Origin: Sutcliffiella horikoshii
GTDB lineage: Bacteria > Bacillota > Bacilli > Bacillales > Bacillaceae_I
Length of the DNA: 64,000 nt
NCBI RefSeq assembly: GCF_019931755.1
Contig: NZ_CP082921.1
Location: 1-64,000 of the forward strand
Reading direction: 5' to 3'
The notes under the pieces were generated by a model. The model did no database searches. It had not been told where the DNA came from and saw only the letters and a list, made by a program, of their open reading frames with translations. Shown piece by piece: positions 6,078 through 63,999 of the stretch. A program made the translations under genes and the position numbers. Within the stretch, counting starts at the first letter, position 1; each line of letters begins with the position of its first letter.

Positions 6078-6398
6078 TTAATCCTTCTTTCCAGTTGCAG
6101 CCCTATTCGGAAACAAAGTAATGGTCGATTTTGTTTGTTCAAGGATAATTTCTGTCCAATCATCTATTAACCATCCTTTTTTCTCGAATAGTTCTAATGT
6201 TTTTAATGGTAAATCACCATAATTATCGCTATGAAATGAAAAGCTAATTTCACCTTCCTCATCTTCCTCTTGAAGCTGAACCCAATTGCCCGTCTTATCA
6301 CTAAAAACTTCTTCTAATGCTTCACGAACTTTTACTAGTGATCCTACTAGGAAAAAATCTGCCGCTCTACAATCTAACTCATATAATCTCTTTTCCAT
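6078..6398 (-). CDS. Hypothetical acidic protein
   Basis: 106 residues, MEKRLYELDCRAADFFLVGS..., with an acidic centre (QLQEEDEEGEI) and 'GWLIDDWTEIILEQTKSTITLFP'. No family recognised. Ribosome binding site AGGAG 10 bases upstream. The start lies inside the end of the next gene upstream (20-base overlap), so the two are translationally coupled. Probably a soluble alpha/beta protein. Confidence 0.65.
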   Translation of the reverse strand: MEKRLYELDCRAADFFLVGSLVKVREALEEVFSDKTGNWVQLQEEDEEGEISFSFHSDNYGDLPLKTLELFEKKGWLIDDWTEIILEQTKSTITLFPNRAATGKKD

Positions 6399-6792
6399 CT
6401 TTACAACACTCCTCTTTATGTTTAGTAAGCTTTTTCGAATTTCTCAAATGTTTGAAAGATATGATGTGATCAATATGCGACCTGTTAGTACTCTTAAGAG
6501 GTAGATCACTCATAATAGCTTTCATTTCATCTATGGATTGCTTTTCCCACTCTTCCAAATATGAAAGGACTTTCTCCTTTTTACACCAGGAAACAGTTAA
6601 ACTTTCAAATTTGTAGTAGCATTTAGTGCCTTCATCTTTCTTGTAGAAAGCATATTCTTGAATGGCATTTTCTGAGGTGGATACATTCAAAATAAAAAGG
6701 GATCCATGTTCAAAATACTGGTGGGGAATCTGAGTATTGCTGACTAATACATTCGCTAGTTCCTCCGCTTGGTTTTTCACTTTTAATAACAT
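6379..6792 (-). CDS. Hypothetical protein, first gene of its operon
   Basis: 137 residues, MLLKVKNQAEELANVLVSNT..., Lys-rich, ending 'HKEECCKDGKEII'. Not recognised. Site AGGAGAG 7 bases before ATG. First gene of a two-gene unit preceded by a long structured leader with two terminator hairpins (6825-6865 and 6905-6957). This suggests expression is held off unless antitermination occurs. Confidence 0.65.
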   Translation of the reverse strand: MLLKVKNQAEELANVLVSNTQIPHQYFEHGSLFILNVSTSENAIQEYAFYKKDEGTKCYYKFESLTVSWCKKEKVLSYLEEWEKQSIDEMKAIMSDLPLKSTNRSHIDHIISFKHLRNSKKLTKHKEECCKDGKEII

Positions 6793-6824: not shown

Positions 6825-6865
6825 AAAAAAGACGAAGTAAATTATAGTAATTTAAGTCGCCTTTG
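6825..6865 (-). terminator. Second terminator in the leader of 6792
   Basis: On the - strand GCGAC-TTAAATTA / TAATTTA-CTTCGTC forms a long hairpin followed by T6ATATA, 33-70 bases before the start codon. It is downstream of the first leader terminator. The SNF2-gene leader has the same two-terminator arrangement. Confidence 0.6.
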
Positions 6866-6904: not shown

Positions 6905-7037
6905 CAAAAAAAGCCCATGAGTAACAAGAACGGTTTTCCGTCTTGACCCATAGGCCCCAATAGTATAGTTAAGTATGCAGCTGACTGTTTTAGTCGCTAA
7001 ATAAAAAATGAAGATATTGTATAAGTTTATTATAGCA
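6905..7037 (-). ncRNA. Structured leader, class I copy 1
   Basis: Reading leftward: extended -10 TGCTATAAT (7029-7037), a T-rich stretch, hairpin motif AGC-GACT-AAAAC-AGTC-AGCTGC (6977-6998), about 40 bases of linker, then terminator GCCTATGGGTCAAGACGG ... CCGTTCTTG ... CATGGGC (6913-6957) with T7GCGTTT. Four other loci in the window have the same order of parts. Read as a 5' leader with a terminator, or as a small RNA; the ligand or partner is unknown. Confidence 0.65.
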
Positions 7038-9002: not shown

Positions 9003-9164
9003 CACAAAAAAGGCCTTTGGACTGATAGGGCAGAAACAATCTGCTTAATCAGATCCAAAGACCTTGTTTATGATATGGGATAGCTGCTGGCTAAAAAGCC
9101 GCTTTTATTAGAAAAAGGTAAAATTTATTAATTTAATAATAGCAATTAAGACATGTAATATCAA
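9003..9164 (-). ncRNA. Structured leader, class I copy 2, with promoter
   Basis: Leftward promoter TTGATA (9159-9164), 17-base spacer, TATTAT (9136-9141) with TGC extension. Then hairpin AGC-GGCT-TTTT-AGCC-AGCAGC (9083-9103), a linker, and terminator AAGGTCTTTGGA ... TCCAAAGGCCTT with inner GCAGA/TCTGC hairpin (9011-9065), T6GTGTTC. The best-preserved complete example of the five-copy family. Confidence 0.7.
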
Positions 9165-9746: not shown

Positions 9747-10079
9747 TTATTGACCTAAGCGATCATTTAATTTGTTCAGCTCATCTGTTTTCGTTCTCTC
9801 AGTACTTAATTCTCTGTACAATAATACATTCTCTGCAGCCATACCAGCCATCACAGCTATTCCAAGTAACTCGCGAATATCACTTGGGTTAAACAAATAA
9901 TGGGTAGCAAAAACTGCCGCCAATGCACTAATTAGAATATCTGCAAAAAATCCTAATTGAATACTTTTTGGGCGCTTAATTTTTCTTGGGAAGATCAAAC
10001 TTTTATCGTGTCTAATTAAATGTGCAACTAAACCCGTAACCCCACCTGCTAAAATAGCAATTAGTACTGTTTGTAACAT
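9747..10079 (-). CDS. DUF4257 family membrane protein
   Basis: About 110 residues from ATG 10079 (site AAGGGAGTGAGAG). MLQTVLIAILAGGVTGLVAHL... and a second hydrophobic segment 'LGFFADILISALAAVFATHY' match DUF4257, a Bacillus family of two- or three-helix membrane proteins of unknown function. The C-terminus adds a polar coiled-coil-like tail (ELSTERTKTDELNKLNDRL). The start codon lies 25 bases after the T-run of class I leader copy 3, so its mRNA must read through that terminator. In-frame codons up to 10139 overlap the hairpin and are rejected. Confidence 0.75.
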   Translation of the reverse strand: MLQTVLIAILAGGVTGLVAHLIRHDKSLIFPRKIKRPKSIQLGFFADILISALAAVFATHYLFNPSDIRELLGIAVMAGMAAENVLLYRELSTERTKTDELNKLNDRLGQ

Positions 10080-10103: not shown

Positions 10104-10257
10104 AAAAAAGACCTCTGGGACGACGAATGAAAAATACACGCAAAGCGTGTATCTTTAAAACGACGACCCAAAGGTCACTAAGCCTAATAGATATACCGCG
10201 AACCATAAAGGTTGCAAAAAAAGAAAAAAGAAAAAATGTTATGTAACTATTATATCA
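10104..10257 (-). ncRNA. Structured leader, class I copy 3
   Basis: Leftward extended -10 TGATATAAT (10249-10257), pyrimidine-rich stretch, hairpin GC-AACC-TTTAT-GGTT-CGCGG (10196-10215), linker, terminator GTGACCTTTGGG ... CCCAGAGGTC with CGTCGT/CGTCGT and ATACACG/CGTGTAT inner stems (10110-10176), T6. Only 25 bases separate it from the DUF4257 start, the clearest case for a cis-acting attenuator. Confidence 0.68.
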
Positions 10258-10331
10258 AGTATTTTATCAGGTTGCTATTACAGTTTTGTTAGATATTTTA
10301 CTTGAAGTACAAGGAATACGGTAAGAATCAC

Positions 10332-12844: not shown

Positions 12845-13075
12845 TCACCAAAAGTCATTAGGATCAATATATCTATCATGTTTTTTTAGAACCTTGATAA
12901 TCATTTTTGCAGTTTGTATGGTAGGTACTCTCTCTTTATCGTTTGCAAGCTGGCTTATTAAGCCTTCACTAACTTTTGCACATTCTGCTAACCACACTTG
13001 TTTTATACCATGCTCTTCTAGGTATCTGCCAAAAGGAGTCTTTCTTTTTCTCTTTTTCGTCCTTACTCCTGTCAT
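12845..13075 (-). CDS. XRE-family helix-turn-helix regulator
   Basis: 76 residues, nearly all of which is one HTH_3 domain: 'FGRYLEEHGIKQVWLAECAK' then 'VSEGLISQLANDKERVPTIQTAKMI'. Very basic N-terminus (TKKRKRKTP). Site GGGAGGGTG. A Cro/CI-type repressor size. Upstream DNA has the palindrome TTTAAATATTTAAA (13151-13164) and the repeat GCGACATTTCGACA (13182-13195), which are candidate operators. Confidence 0.8.
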   Translation of the reverse strand: MTGVRTKKRKRKTPFGRYLEEHGIKQVWLAECAKVSEGLISQLANDKERVPTIQTAKMIIKVLKKHDRYIDPNDFW

Positions 13076-18960: not shown

Positions 18961-19105
18961 ATCCTTATTCCATTAAAGCGCCCGATTCTTGAATAAGCAG
19001 TTACCTACTATTAGCTGGTTTTGCGGAAGACTTGAATTTGAGATAACTTGTACTATGACCTTAAATTAAAGCTGCTTGGTTGTTTAATTCCAATTATTTC
19101 ATAAA

Positions 19106-19179
19106 GAGCTGTATGGATCGAGAGGTTCACATATAGTTCTGTGAAAGGCTATGGGTGAAAATCCCATTGGCTACTCGAC
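19106..19179 (+). mobile_element. 3' remnant of a group II intron (domains V-VI)
   Basis: 19106-19139 is a 34-base domain V: GAGCTGTATG pairs with CATATAGTTC, the AGC triad is at positions 2-4, and there is a GAGA tetraloop (19120-19123) and a two-base bulge (19128-19129). It is followed by a domain VI hairpin (ATGGG...CCCAT) and the 3' end CTACTCGAC. The 5' domains and the reverse transcriptase are absent, so the copy is dead. The end closely resembles group IIC-type introns of Oceanobacillus, a family that often inserts near terminators; one lies 150 bases upstream. Confidence 0.8.
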
Positions 19180-52100: not shown

Positions 52101-52507
52101 CGGTTCTGGTTAATCGTAATCGGAAATTTTTCATAGGCGCCTTTTTCAGCCGATATTCGGAACTCCCTTTCAAACTCATAGGAAGTTAAAGTTTTGTTTC
52201 CATGGCCAAAATACAACCCGTTACTCCCTATATCCATTGCACCTTTCATACTCTGTAAAGTAGAATCGTTTCCAGCAACAATGGTCATAAGGATTTTAGG
52301 TTGTTGCCACTGGTGTTCGGGGGCTTCACAAGCAAGCGCATAACAGAAAGCATTTTGCCATGATTGGTCCAAGTACACCTCAAGCTGCTTCGGTTGGTCT
52401 GTGGTCTCCACAATTTGGTTGTAATTAATTATTTTCATAAAAAATAGCCTAGCTAGAACGCTAGACTTCACCTCTCTTTCAGTTTGTTTTAAGCTGTAAC
52501 GCTTCAC
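49133..52507 (-). CDS. SNF2-type DEAD/H helicase with zinc fingers
   Basis: 1124 residues. Walker A IIQGEMSTGKSAMM (about 316-329), zinc-finger insert CPSCGQ (about 445) and CSECGEN (about 501), DEVH (about 576-579), C-terminal helicase motifs 'VSQELVKVGLDLLCTPTLIY' and QSARRAWRIGQDQECRLYYI (about 900-925). This is the SNF2-like group found in phages and conjugative elements. The last residues QLAFDLF form a clamp-binding-like peptide. GTG start at 52507 is weakly supported; ATG 52438 (MKIINYNQ) is an alternative. First gene of a long operon behind class I leader copy 4. Confidence 0.85.
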   Translation of the reverse strand: MKRYSLKQTEREVKSSVLARLFFMKIINYNQIVETTDQPKQLEVYLDQSWQNAFCYALACEAPEHQWQQPKILMTIVAGNDSTLQSMKGAMDIGSNGLYFGHGNKTLTSYEFEREFRISAEKGAYEKFPITINQNRKALAIVHEKVLANEEYVLSFEGEPAEDIANLLGGSKYGLHILEEWKKDVYNELLRCKHLEQVPLYYDTNLFPDGLSLLKINLTEEAADDLISRMIKSKVLSFPVEGSGEAVSNIDDLTNYMVDYSDDMVEKLSQEVTPTHDPLQDSSLEHFKSYPRELFPVQAHVATAVSKRLNEQKAVIIQGEMSTGKSAMMTSIADGYNRMKGKVGYFACLMVPPSLTVKWPDEIREIVPHAEVHVIERTEQLIRFHNQWTANGRPKPIKPTFFVISFTTMRGDSRLMPAVTFQEKKTLIQKTNDRNPYRYGYYCPSCGQAHQVIESTNVVVTEDGQEVDEHTKRTMMEDEFSSSRRLKNSAKPQNAFCSECGENLWSKRVPTRYRSFSEWKEHEKKLVQAIEQNNNKLVEHIQHTQKEPDKVVGMPRKLATIEYIRRRMKNFFDISLCDEVHELKAGMTAQGVSLGSLAAVSKKVIAGTGTLFGGRAEDIYYLLWRLFPQDMVASGYQYSEVRRFNEEFGNIEETIYERKESSEFSNTNSRGGVRRTEKILPGISPFIYGKFMVHNVINVRLKDVWPDPVELVDTPTIFVDMDEETKEHYQEMINTFEHQIDQRDDGFKLYLPMTDYGIAYPDNPFTFPDCTMKQEEGDRALIWKAKHLSTDKLLNKEKKLQEIIESEMSEGRKSIVYVRDTGSSNPGRDLRPRLKEVLEKVGAKVCVLDTGTVKGNQRSTWLKKKMEDENFDVCIVSQELVKVGLDLLCTPTLIYYQFSWSLFTINQSARRAWRIGQDQECRLYYIQYKETFQESMATLIAQKNRATAAINGEVSSDGLSAMLGDEGDLQSMLIESVKKGNKVLKGSTEDWVSQHSDRAREILSGIGKKKKQKPLSIRDQLLKWVSHQVDTEATRNVINRNGTTIAENIKRGLILGFSVKNQVLEVDMTTAFGMDFVDDVALLDHLTAPQRQHDKSIVSKIVESESVSKRKKGPVDGQLAFDLF

Positions 52508-52601: not shown

Positions 52602-52774
52602 CAAAAAAGCCCTTGGACAACTAGTATAAGCACATTAAGAATGTGTCTTTTCTAATTGCCCAAAGGCTACTGTTTAAAAGTTTACTTGATAAACTGCTAA
52701 CACTATTGTGTCGCGAAAAAAAGCATATTACTTAAATATAAGTATATTATACCCATAGTTCTTATCTTCGACAA
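52602..52774 (-). ncRNA. Structured leader, class I copy 4, with promoter
   Basis: Leftward promoter TTGTCG (52769-52774), 17 bases, TATAAT (52746-52751). Hairpin GC-G-ACAC-AATA-GTGT-T-AGCAG (52694-52714), linker, terminator TAGCCTTTGGGCAATTAG ... CTAGTTGTCCAAGGGC with inner GACACATT/AATGTGC (52609-52669), T6GCGTTC. Heads the SNF2 operon. Confidence 0.7.
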
Positions 52775-63445: not shown

Positions 63446-63793
63446 TTAATCGTCTAGACCAAAAAAGTAATCAAAGAGCCTAGTTCTAATTGATTGCTTC
63501 TGCTTTACAGGGCTTTTACTACCAATATAGTATTCTTTCTCCCCTAAGAAGCTCCACACGATAGTTTGACCAGTCTGTCGCTCCATACAATCCACAAAGT
63601 GAAGTACTTCAACAACAGCCTTTTCTCGGTTTTCTGCTCTACAAGGGAAAATACGACGTTCTCCGTCCTTGAAGATAATCTCCGCTTTAATACGCTTTTG
63701 TCTAGTAATCACTTGCAAAGTTGGACGATTTGCCAAGTATTCTGTAACTGCGTCTTTCTTTCCTCCGATAAGTTCCACTAATGTTTGTGCCAT
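63446..63793 (-). CDS. Conserved hypothetical protein, first gene of ssb operon
   Basis: 115 residues from ATG 63793 (AGAAAGGGTG). MAQTLVELIGGKKDAVTEYL..., beta-rich centre 'KRIKAEIIFKDGERRIFPCR' and C-terminal 'RTRLFDYFFGLDD'. Not recognised. Behind class I leader copy 5, with the start only 38 bases after the terminator T-run. Its 5' sequence resembles that of the 17183 gene. Confidence 0.65.
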   Translation of the reverse strand: MAQTLVELIGGKKDAVTEYLANRPTLQVITRQKRIKAEIIFKDGERRIFPCRAENREKAVVEVLHFVDCMERQTGQTIVWSFLGEKEYYIGSKSPVKQKQSIRTRLFDYFFGLDD

Positions 63794-63828
63794 GTTAATA
63801 AACACCCTTTCTAAGAGTTTTTTAAACG

Positions 63829-63999
63829 CAAAAAAGCACCCTTTAGAAATGATTGGTTTAACCAAAATGGTTTGATCAATCACCCCAAAGAGTGCATGCG
63901 TTTATGAAATATAAGGTCCGCTAACCTTAAAAGGTTGCTTAATAAAAAAAGAGAGAAGTAATATATGTTAATTATACTAATTAATAGTTGTAATCACAA
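63829..63999 (-). ncRNA. Structured leader, class I copy 5, with promoter
   Basis: Leftward promoter TTGTGA (63994-63999), 17 bases, TATAAT (63971-63976). Hairpin GC-AACC-TTTTAA-GGTT-AGCGG (63918-63938), linker, terminator GCACTCTTTGG ... CTAAAGGGTGC with GTGATTG/CAATCA and AAACCA/TGGTT inner stems (63836-63895), T6GCGTTT. Its hairpin arms are the same AACC/GGTT as in copy 3. Confidence 0.7.

What the first reader, a model, noticed from the sequence alone, without database searches (positions are those of the whole stretch)
6905..7037. A five-copy family of structured leader RNAs, first copy
Five leftward operons (starts at 6792, 8872, 10079, 52507, 63793) have the same leader plan: promoter, T-rich stretch, a small hairpin GC-(4-bp stem)-loop-(stem)-(A/C)GCnG, 40-50 bases, and a strong terminator, mostly with CUUUGG/CCAAAG arms and U6-GCGUU. 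Stem sequences differ but compensate (GACT/AGTC, GGCT/AGCC, AACC/GGTT, ACAC/GTGT), which is good evidence for a selected RNA structure. The ext/consensus promoter and terminator define transcripts of about 120-150 bases. They may be attenuators needing an antiterminator, or a plasmid small-RNA family. I recall an Rfam 'Bacillus-plasmid' motif but cannot tell whether it is the same. This is my first choice for an undescribed regulatory system.
Basis: partly seen in the sequence, partly recalled or inferred. Interest (0 to 1): 0.85.

Follow-up and report, generated by a model that had tools for sequence, protein, structure and literature searches.

The report
Plasmid leader RNAs switching shared operons
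A family of large plasmids of Bacillus relatives carries six to ten copies each of one small structured RNA leader that should stop transcription in front of the plasmid's DNA-handling genes unless something overrides it, which looks like an undescribed shared on/off switch for those genes.

Summary
All five leaders are real; the 167,860-bp plasmid holds nine, and the search of its genome found none elsewhere. Nine related plasmids hold 70 copies; 21 of 397 sampled genomes of the order hold 98 matches. No Rfam family matches. Each leader has a promoter-like -10, a U-rich 5' end, a small hairpin (P1) with one bulged base, a linker and a long terminator. P1 pairs in 97.4% of cells against at most 36% when slid. 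The same operons carry it: SSB 9/9, Rad52-DnaN 9/9, DUF4258/DUF3854 8/9. Two Planococcus plasmids keep the layout there with a re-coded P1, which suggests a cognate trans-acting factor. New here: sequence beyond the terminator is co-selected with the linker (P2) and the 5' end (P0), so read-through RNA can close into a three-way junction. Best reading: a multi-operon attenuator released by antitermination; a conserved S1-domain protein is an unproven candidate factor. It works most like LoaP/dfn and resembles pLS20 EGeRS regulons in logic, but belongs to neither. No transcript data exist.

The parts
7029..7037 (-). copy 1: extended -10 promoter element TGCTATAAT
   Evidence: best -10-like box ends 28-36 nt before P1 in 49 of 61 copies
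6980..6997 (-). copy 1: bulged hairpin P1, GC-GACT-aaaac-AGTC-A-GC
   Evidence: R1 50.1 bits; covariation
6912..6956 (-). copy 1: terminator hairpin, arms GGCCTATGGG/CTCATGGGCT, followed by T tract and GCGTT (to 6901)
6831..6861 (-). copy 1: second terminator-like hairpin before the ORF at 6379-6792
   Evidence: 8 of 61 copies have one by the strict rule, 0 in block shuffles
9136..9144 (-). copy 2: -10 promoter element TGCTATTAT
9086..9102 (-). copy 2: P1, GC-GGCT-tttt-AGCC-A-GC, upstream of the Phage_L5_gp82 / PAPS-reductase-like genes
   Evidence: R1 47.7 bits; Pfam
9010..9065 (-). copy 2: terminator, AAGGTCTTTGGA/TCCAAAGGCCTT, then T tract and GTGTT
10249..10258 (-). copy 3: -10 promoter element, TATAAT
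10198..10215 (-). copy 3: P1, GC-AACC-tttat-GGTT-C-GC
   Evidence: R1 54.5 bits
10110..10176 (-). copy 3: terminator GACCTTTGGG/TCCCAGAGGTC with apical hairpin; ATG of the DUF4257 gene at 10079, a little after the T tract
   Evidence: terminator read by eye; the script chose the apical hairpin
52746..52754 (-). copy 4: -10 promoter element, TATAAT
52696..52715 (-). copy 4: P1, GC-GACAC-aata-GTGTT-A-GC (with a G-U pair), upstream of the DEAD/DEAH helicase gene
   Evidence: R1 51.4 bits
52608..52668 (-). copy 4: terminator AGCCTTTGGGC/GTCCAAGGGCT, then T tract and GCGTT
52446..52467 (-). copy 4: second terminator-like hairpin, just before a possible ATG start of the helicase (it lies inside the ORF if the GTG at 52507 is the start)
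63971..63978 (-). copy 5: -10 promoter element, TATAAT
63920..63938 (-). copy 5: P1, GC-AACC-ttttaa-GGTT-A-GC, upstream of DUF6018-SSB
   Evidence: R1 55.4 bits
63897..63906 (-). copy 5: linker strand of P2 (CATAAACGCA)
   Evidence: 8-bp pairing with TGCGTTTA at 63823-63830
63836..63895 (-). copy 5: terminator hairpin GCACTCTTTGGGG/TTCTAAAGGGTGC, followed by the T tract
63823..63830 (-). copy 5: tail strand of P2 (TGCGTTTA), at the end of the T tract
63791..63812 (-). copy 5: ribosome-binding region and ATG of the DUF6018 gene; its AGAAAGGG can pair with the U-rich 5' end (P0)

Best explanation
Each leader is a transcription attenuator of one plasmid regulon. Default (inferred from the hairpin plus U tract): RNA polymerase starts at the promoter, makes the U-rich 5' end and the bulged hairpin P1, and stops at the terminator, giving a short RNA (about 115-140 nt for the five window copies, counted from 7 nt after the -10 box). 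To express the operon, a trans-acting factor matched to that plasmid lineage recognises P1 (and possibly the linker) and modifies the polymerase so that it passes this terminator and, in some leaders, a second one before the gene. Once read through, sequence after the terminator pairs with the linker (P2) and the RNA 5' end (P0), closing a three-way junction that hides the 5' end, probably to shape stability or ribosome access. The regulon is DNA-handling and establishment-type genes (SSB, Rad52-sliding clamp, ArdC-like/helicase, DUF3854, PAPS-reductase-like). The candidate factor I favour is the plasmid's conserved S1-domain protein, encoded next to the coupling-protein and relaxase-like genes. 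Shown here: anatomy, family, covariation, orthologous placement, two P1 classes. Inferred: termination, antitermination, the factor, the timing.
For: 70 copies on nine plasmids with a clean score gap; P1 covariation; same operons on different plasmids; nine class II P1 copies in two Planococcus plasmids, eight ahead of genes matching the same families by sequence and one directly ahead of SSB; a hairpin plus T tract assigned in 65 of 65 P1-parsed copies, 61 usable; second terminator-like hairpins in 8 of 61 leaders, which favours a polymerase-modifying mechanism; P2 and P0, own versus permuted z -6.7 and -4.5, within-plasmid 0/20000 each, 28 held-out leaders after removing repeats: P2 0/20000, P0 10/20000, control z +0.3; P0 signal lies after the inferred start, not in the promoter. 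S1 protein: 15 of 15 S1-positive genomes among 397 are leader-positive; Pfam S1 and profile match to ribosomal protein S1. Precedent: the dfn leader needs a small hairpin, a NusA-dependent terminator and LoaP (passages of PMC12691694).
Against: No transcript, termination or binding data. S1 presence is confounded with the plasmid backbone (37 families are in all nine plasmids). Six leader-positive genomes have no S1 match at E 1e-30 (G008, G073, G099, G122, G216, G320): G073, G099 and G216 show backbone relatives near the leader, but G008, G122 and G320 show little or none. Two Virgibacillus leaders keep a terminator and a P2-like pairing but no clear P1 by eye. One Rossellomorea copy has lost the terminator 3' arm. 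Some copies outside the nine plasmids have no ORF close behind. P0 is partly compositional: chimeric leaders form P0 of 6 or more pairs in 70-80% against 85% for own; a scan with 18-nt downstream windows reached only z -2.6; on held-out class I copies alone P0 gives 1065/20000, and on class II alone P2 gives 967/20000. In one search one measure, the number of pairs with a two-sided change (5 against 4.2), does not exceed the shuffles, and that alignment was fitted to the P1 structure.
Confidence: 0.6

Rival explanations
1. Termination-promoting attenuator: read-through is the default just after entry, and a plasmid protein binding P1 helps terminate once the plasmid is established (TRAP-like logic).
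For: Same anatomy; establishment-type genes are the sort that should be shut off after entry (passages and one section of PMC8708921).
Against: The terminator stems are long and followed by a U tract, so they should form unaided; second terminator-like hairpins in 8 of 61 leaders.
Confidence: 0.15
2. The terminated leader RNAs act in trans as a small-RNA family (sponge for an RNA-binding protein, or antisense to the matching mRNA 5' end through the P0 and P2 strands).
For: Promoter and terminator; some copies without a close ORF; P0/P2 co-selection cannot by itself tell cis from trans pairing.
Against: Copies sit in front of the same operons on different plasmids, with the script's start codon 25-65 nt after the T tract in most of 61; the mRNA already carries the complementary strands in cis.
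Confidence: 0.12
3. Single-stranded-DNA element (Frpo/ssi-like promoter or single-strand origin) used when the plasmid enters as one strand.
For: Inverted repeats upstream of SSB, ArdC-like and Rad52 genes; such promoters for leading-region genes are recalled (related papers seen only as a search listing).
Against: The P0 signal lies after the inferred transcription start; windows over the promoter give z between -1.4 and +2.5; a promoter-like sequence lies just upstream; copies point in both directions on one plasmid.
Confidence: 0.05
4. A metabolite-sensing riboswitch whose expression platform is the terminator.
For: Structured leader with terminator.
Against: P1 is small and its stem varies freely; the operons are DNA-handling functions, not a metabolic pathway; no Rfam riboswitch match in the window.
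Confidence: 0.03

Closest known systems
LoaP / dfn leader antitermination (Bacillus velezensis; PMC12691694, passages read)
   Same: Small hairpin in a 5' leader, intrinsic terminator behind it, factor that lets polymerase pass it.
   Different: dfn hairpin is a UNCG type; LoaP is a NusG paralogue and this genome gave one NusG-family match, on the chromosome; here many operons of one plasmid share the leader, and read-through RNA can close into P0/P2.
conAn antitermination of pLS20 (PMC8955417, three passages read; the primary paper was not held)
   Same: Conjugative plasmids of Bacillus relatives; RNA element near a promoter; terminators to be passed.
   Different: conAn sits at the start of one long conjugation operon as a protein plus an RNA; here there are 6-10 short leaders per plasmid (nine plasmids) and none lies directly ahead of the relaxase-VirD4-S1 block.
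EGeRS1 / EGeRS2 establishment regulatory sequences of pLS20 and p576 (PMC8708921, passages and one section read)
   Same: One regulatory sequence repeated in front of several establishment operons (ArdC and others); EGeRS1 blocks read-through and is rich in inverted repeats.
   Different: EGeRS1 is 420-750 bp and showed no constitutive promoter; EGeRS2 is a promoter with repressor sites. The leader here is about 150-200 bp with its own promoter-like sequence; R1 has no good match in 26 kb of pLS20 that hold the EGeRS1 operons (best 14.6 bits).
Lambda-type nut sites with N protein (recalled)
   Same: Lineage-specific hairpin recognised by a cognate protein, processive antitermination.
   Different: No N-like protein identified here; the terminator lies directly behind the hairpin.

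Membership tests
LoaP-regulated leaders | NusG-paralogue (LoaP) encoded in the genome | tested here: not met
   One NusG-family match in the genome, on chromosomal contig C1
LoaP-regulated leaders | UNCG-tetraloop hairpin | tested here: not met
   P1 loops are variable and mostly U-rich, with a bulged base in the stem
LoaP-regulated leaders | Intrinsic terminator downstream of the hairpin in the leader | tested here: met
   (predicted, not measured)
conAn | RNA element at the start of the long conjugation operon | tested here: not met
   Leaders sit in front of other operons; by coordinates none lies directly ahead of the relaxase-VirD4-S1 block in the nine plasmids
EGeRS1 | Sequence relationship to the 420-750-bp pLS20 elements | tested here: not met
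   R1 best 14.6 bits on 26 kb of pLS20; tested with this model only
EGeRS1 | No constitutive promoter | not testable with these tools
   Promoter-like sequences are present here; activity untested
Rfam families (4227, release 15) | Score above the family's gathering cut-off | tested here: not met
   No match in the window, none relevant at E up to 5, and three matches in five further stretches, none on a leader
Transcription attenuator (general kind) | Leader terminator between promoter and first gene, with regulated read-through | tested here: inconclusive
   Anatomy met; read-through is inferred from P0/P2 co-selection, not measured

The most novel reading that the evidence does not exclude
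A plasmid-encoded S1-domain protein made with the DNA-transfer genes is a processive antitermination factor that recognises the bulged hairpin P1, so that one protein switches on all establishment and DNA-repair operons together, and plasmid lineages have re-coded the hairpin (class I and class II) so that each factor works only on its own leaders; the read-through RNA then locks itself into a three-way junction.
Probability: 0.22. Interest if true: 0.88.

Novelty: new variant of a known kind. Interest (0 to 1): 0.74.

Why it matters
How large plasmids of Gram-positive bacteria turn on their establishment genes is partly open: for EGeRS1 plasmids the authors state that the mechanism is unknown (PMC8708921, passage read). 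Here is a compact RNA element with a clear anatomy, found in 15 of 135 sampled genera and in front of the same genes on the nine plasmids compared, whose hairpin has been re-coded in at least one lineage. If the reading holds it gives a testable regulon-wide RNA switch, a possible new class of antitermination protein, and a sequence tag for finding establishment genes in plasmids whose genes are mostly unannotated.

Tried and rejected
NusG paralogue as factor: one match, on the chromosome. Rfam membership: none. pLS20 EGeRS1 relation: no good R1 match in 26 kb. An antiterminator in which the linker or P1 pairs with the terminator's apical part: own pairing weaker than permuted (z +3.4 and +1.9). 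P1 pairing with the tail: z -0.5. P0 as part of an ssDNA promoter: no signal in promoter windows. Lactiplantibacillus pLB1-2A and B. paralicheniformis pBP1, which share a distant helicase: no S1 match and no R1 match. Class II P1 pattern in the order sample: 0 of 397 genomes, so class II is known here only from two Planococcus plasmids. R1 on stretches of about 41 kb or less of Metabacillus, Sporosarcina, Paenibacillus, Cytobacillus YPW-V2, Bacillaceae C02, pLB1-2A and pBP1 gave nothing above 17 bits, a strict script scan of the same seven printed nothing, and a looser one gave chance-looking hits that I did not count; on whole records only Cytobacillus YPW-V2 of these seven has one match (37.3 bits). 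Metabacillus and Sporosarcina stretches show leader-like layouts by eye, not tested statistically.

Literature: nine searches showed no description of this element in their listings of the held open-access library; subscription papers were not searched.

Full report
WHERE IT IS. The window is bases 1-64000 of a 167,860-bp contig (C4) of a 4.5-Mb genome. The nearest named relatives of its helicase and S1 genes are large plasmids of Rossellomorea, Halobacillus, Cytobacillus, Terribacillus, Priestia, Niallia, Virgibacillus and Planococcus. Annotated relatives carry PrgI-family, DUF87 (VirB4-like), TraM-recognition (VirD4-like) and replication-relaxation genes, so I treat them as conjugative-type plasmids; PLSDB typing calls the two that I fetched whole by name non-mobilizable.

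THE OBSERVATION. All five leaders are as described. I built a covariance model (R1, 65 positions, 7 pairs) from 15 copies: five of the window, three more of C4, two of Rossellomorea p25 and five of Halobacillus pLDW-31. It finds nine copies on C4 and none elsewhere in the genome at E up to 1 (150 of 1751 first-look candidates were scored). On 1.47 Mb, covering nine whole plasmids, it reports 77 matches at E up to 1: 76 score 30 bits or more, the remaining one 20.9. Six of the 76 are second reports of a copy in overlapping stretches, leaving 70 copies (6-10 per plasmid), 55 of them not used to build the model. Of 18 genomes of the family, 3 have matches; of 397 sampled from the order, 21, with 98 matches (stricter filters, 13 candidates scored per genome); of 398 sampled from the class, 3, all three already in the order sample. 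The own genome is among these.

P1 IS A REAL RNA HAIRPIN. On a MAFFT alignment of the 15 copies, RNAalifold predicts exactly this hairpin, with two-sided changes in 4 of 6 pairs. On the 77 matches (71 distinct rows, one of them the 20.9-bit match) 97.4% of cells form standard pairs; 72 cells have changes on both sides against 17.2 in shuffles, and sliding the partner by 1-3 columns drops pairing to at most 36%. That alignment was fitted to the P1 structure, some rows are near relatives, and the count of pairs with a two-sided change (5 against 4.2) does not exceed the shuffles. P1 is GC, a stem, a loop, the other stem strand, one bulged base, GC, N, G. In 65 copies parsed by script the bulge is A in 59, C in 3 and T in 3. 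Five of the 70 copies were not parsed: by eye three have 3-bp stems and two are irregular.

TERMINATOR. The script assigned a hairpin plus T tract to all 65 parsed copies. I dropped four on inspection and used 61. Dropped: C4 10165 and P14 36159, where the script chose the apical hairpin but the CTTTGG arms are there by eye; Hal 27661, where an interrupted T tract misled it; and Ros 12893-12956, where the 3' arm is missing. That last copy lies about 180 bp upstream of an intact one. Of the 61 kept, at least one (Ros 5138) has its arms off register. A second terminator-like hairpin before the gene is found in 8 of 61 by a strict rule, none in block shuffles; in two of the eight (the helicase leaders of C4 and P14) this depends on which start codon is used.

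SAME OPERONS ON DIFFERENT PLASMIDS. Leaders precede DUF6018 of the SSB operon in 9 of 9 plasmids, Rad52-DnaN in 9 of 9, and DUF4258/DUF3854 in 8 of 9. They also precede the helicase or the ArdC-like gene before it, the L5-gp82/PAPS-reductase-like genes, DUF4257 genes and others, in subsets. By coordinates none lies directly ahead of the relaxase-VirD4-S1 block. Copies point both ways on one plasmid.

A SECOND HAIRPIN CLASS. Two Planococcus plasmids have the same backbone genes, but R1 finds only one copy above 30 bits there (33.5). A generic scan found nine leaders with the same plan but another P1: GUC, stem GARC, loop, GYUC, bulged U or C, GAC, GG. The pattern occurs nine times in the four Planococcus loci and in none of the other 180 loci held, and in 0 of 397 genomes of the order, where the reversed control pattern occurs eight times. 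By sequence, eight of the nine lie ahead of genes of the same families: F27 Rad52 twice, F37/F5 (DUF4258/DUF3854) twice, F35 twice, F18 DUF6018 once, F105 ArdC-like once; the ninth (L146 47169) lies ahead of an unmatched small gene directly before SSB. I fetched all but about 11 kb of one plasmid and 50 of 329 kb of the other. So the layout and the target genes are kept while the hairpin is re-coded with its pairing intact. That is what a cognate trans-acting factor would produce, as recalled for lambda-type N proteins.

PAIRING ACROSS THE TERMINATOR. The linker often carries YAAACRY and the tail after the T tract GYGTTTR. I tested whether each copy's linker pairs better with its own tail than with other copies' tails. 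For 61 copies the mean duplex energy is -4.42 own against -2.93 permuted (0 of 20000). Of ten segment pairs tested this way, two stand out: linker with tail (P2, z -6.7) and the U-rich 5' end with the stretch 5-35 nt after the T tract (P0, z -4.5); the other eight lie between -1.2 and +3.4. Permuting only within each plasmid gives P2 z -7.0 and P0 z -4.6 (0 of 20000 each). With 18-nt downstream windows the P0 signal is weaker (best z -2.6, at 2-14 nt after the tract); with 18-nt upstream windows it peaks 6 nt before P1 (z -3.6), inside the transcript, and promoter windows give -1.4 to +2.5. A held-out test used 26 class I loci (five dropped because the script found no P1) and ten Planococcus copies. 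After removal of one double count and two loci from a genus already used, 28 leaders remain: P2 z -5.2 (0 of 20000), P0 z -3.5 (10 of 20000), control +0.3. Class I (18): P2 -4.4, P0 -1.7 (1065 of 20000). Class II (9): P2 -1.7 (967 of 20000), P0 -3.9 (6 of 20000). In minimum-energy folds of read-through leaders, P0 (6 or more pairs) appears in 52, P1 in 50, P2 (4 or more pairs) in 44 and the terminator in 61 of 61. Chimeras with another copy's downstream part form the joint P0+P1+P2 fold in 21-33% against 48% for own, and P0 alone in 70-80% against 85%; P0 is therefore partly compositional.

WHAT THIS MEANS. The P0 and P2 downstream strands exist only in RNA that has passed the terminator, so selection on them implies that read-through RNA is made and its fold matters, unless the short RNA pairs with the mRNA in trans. 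The simplest reading is an attenuator with two states: stopped (P1 plus terminator) and read-through (three-way junction). That a factor is needed is inferred from the terminator, the second terminators and the re-coding of P1.

CANDIDATE FACTOR. A protein of 296 residues on C4 with an S1 domain (Pfam E 8e-12; profile match to ribosomal protein S1, up to three stretches) is in all nine plasmids. Among the 397 genomes it occurs in 15, all leader-positive. Six leader-positive genomes have no match at E 1e-30; they have one or two leaders each. Three (G073, G099, G216) show backbone relatives near the leader, three (G008, G122, G320) little or none. Of 12 named plasmids looked at whole, 10 have an S1 relative at E up to 0.001 and 5 an R1 match at E up to 0.05; the Planococcus lenghuensis plasmid is R1-negative but has class II leaders. 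This co-occurrence does not separate the S1 gene from the other 36 families present in all nine plasmids. It was chosen because it is the RNA-binding-type protein that I recognised among the conserved families; not every family was scanned.

COMPARED WITH WHAT IS KNOWN. In mechanism it most resembles the dfn leader, where a small hairpin, a NusA-dependent terminator and LoaP act together (PMC12691694, passages), but the hairpin type and factor family differ. In logic it resembles the establishment regulons of pLS20 and p576 (PMC8708921, passages and one section), without a match of the model. conAn (PMC8955417, three passages) acts at the head of one long operon. I file it under none of these. 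Nine literature searches listed no description.

VERDICT. A real, widespread, apparently undescribed RNA leader family; new variant of a known kind (attenuation/antitermination). The mechanism is likely but untested, and the factor is a candidate only.

Noticed in passing
window 19098-19179 (+): Below-cut-off Rfam match to a group II intron model (36.7 bits, cut-off 40): a possible group II intron remnant on the plasmid.
   Followed up: no
window 52439-52507 (-): The helicase ORF opens with GTG at 52507, but a terminator-like hairpin (52467-52446) lies between it and an ATG just after it, so the true start may be that ATG.
   Followed up: partly
L008 12714-12956 (-): Rossellomorea p25 has two leaders in tandem; the upstream one has lost the terminator's 3' arm.
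   Followed up: partly
L147 24660-24840, 29350-29560 (+): Virgibacillus leaders keep a promoter-like box, U-rich start, terminator and a P2-like pairing but show no clear P1 by eye: a possible natural P1-less variant.
   Followed up: partly
L138 18220-18400 and 19790-19995 (+); L139 35490-35640 (+): Metabacillus pB218 (hairpin GCTC..GAGC, twice) and Sporosarcina pSP10 (TTCCACCC..GGGAGGAA) have leader-like layouts by eye, perhaps further P1 classes.
   Followed up: partly
L008 20227-20451 (-): Rossellomorea p25 carries a gene annotated as the RNA chaperone Hfq.
   Followed up: no
L122 19185-20357 (-): Bacillus paralicheniformis pBP1 carries a flagellin (hag) next to a gene annotated as carbon storage regulator.
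   Followed up: no
L097 11425-11505 (-); L012 25317-25387 (+): A c-di-GMP-I riboswitch (72.3 bits) and a tRNA gene lie on leader-bearing plasmids.
   Followed up: no
L153 (G008:C2, 18,297 bp): A small contig of the same genus carries a single leader with no ORF close behind it: an orphan copy.
   Followed up: partly
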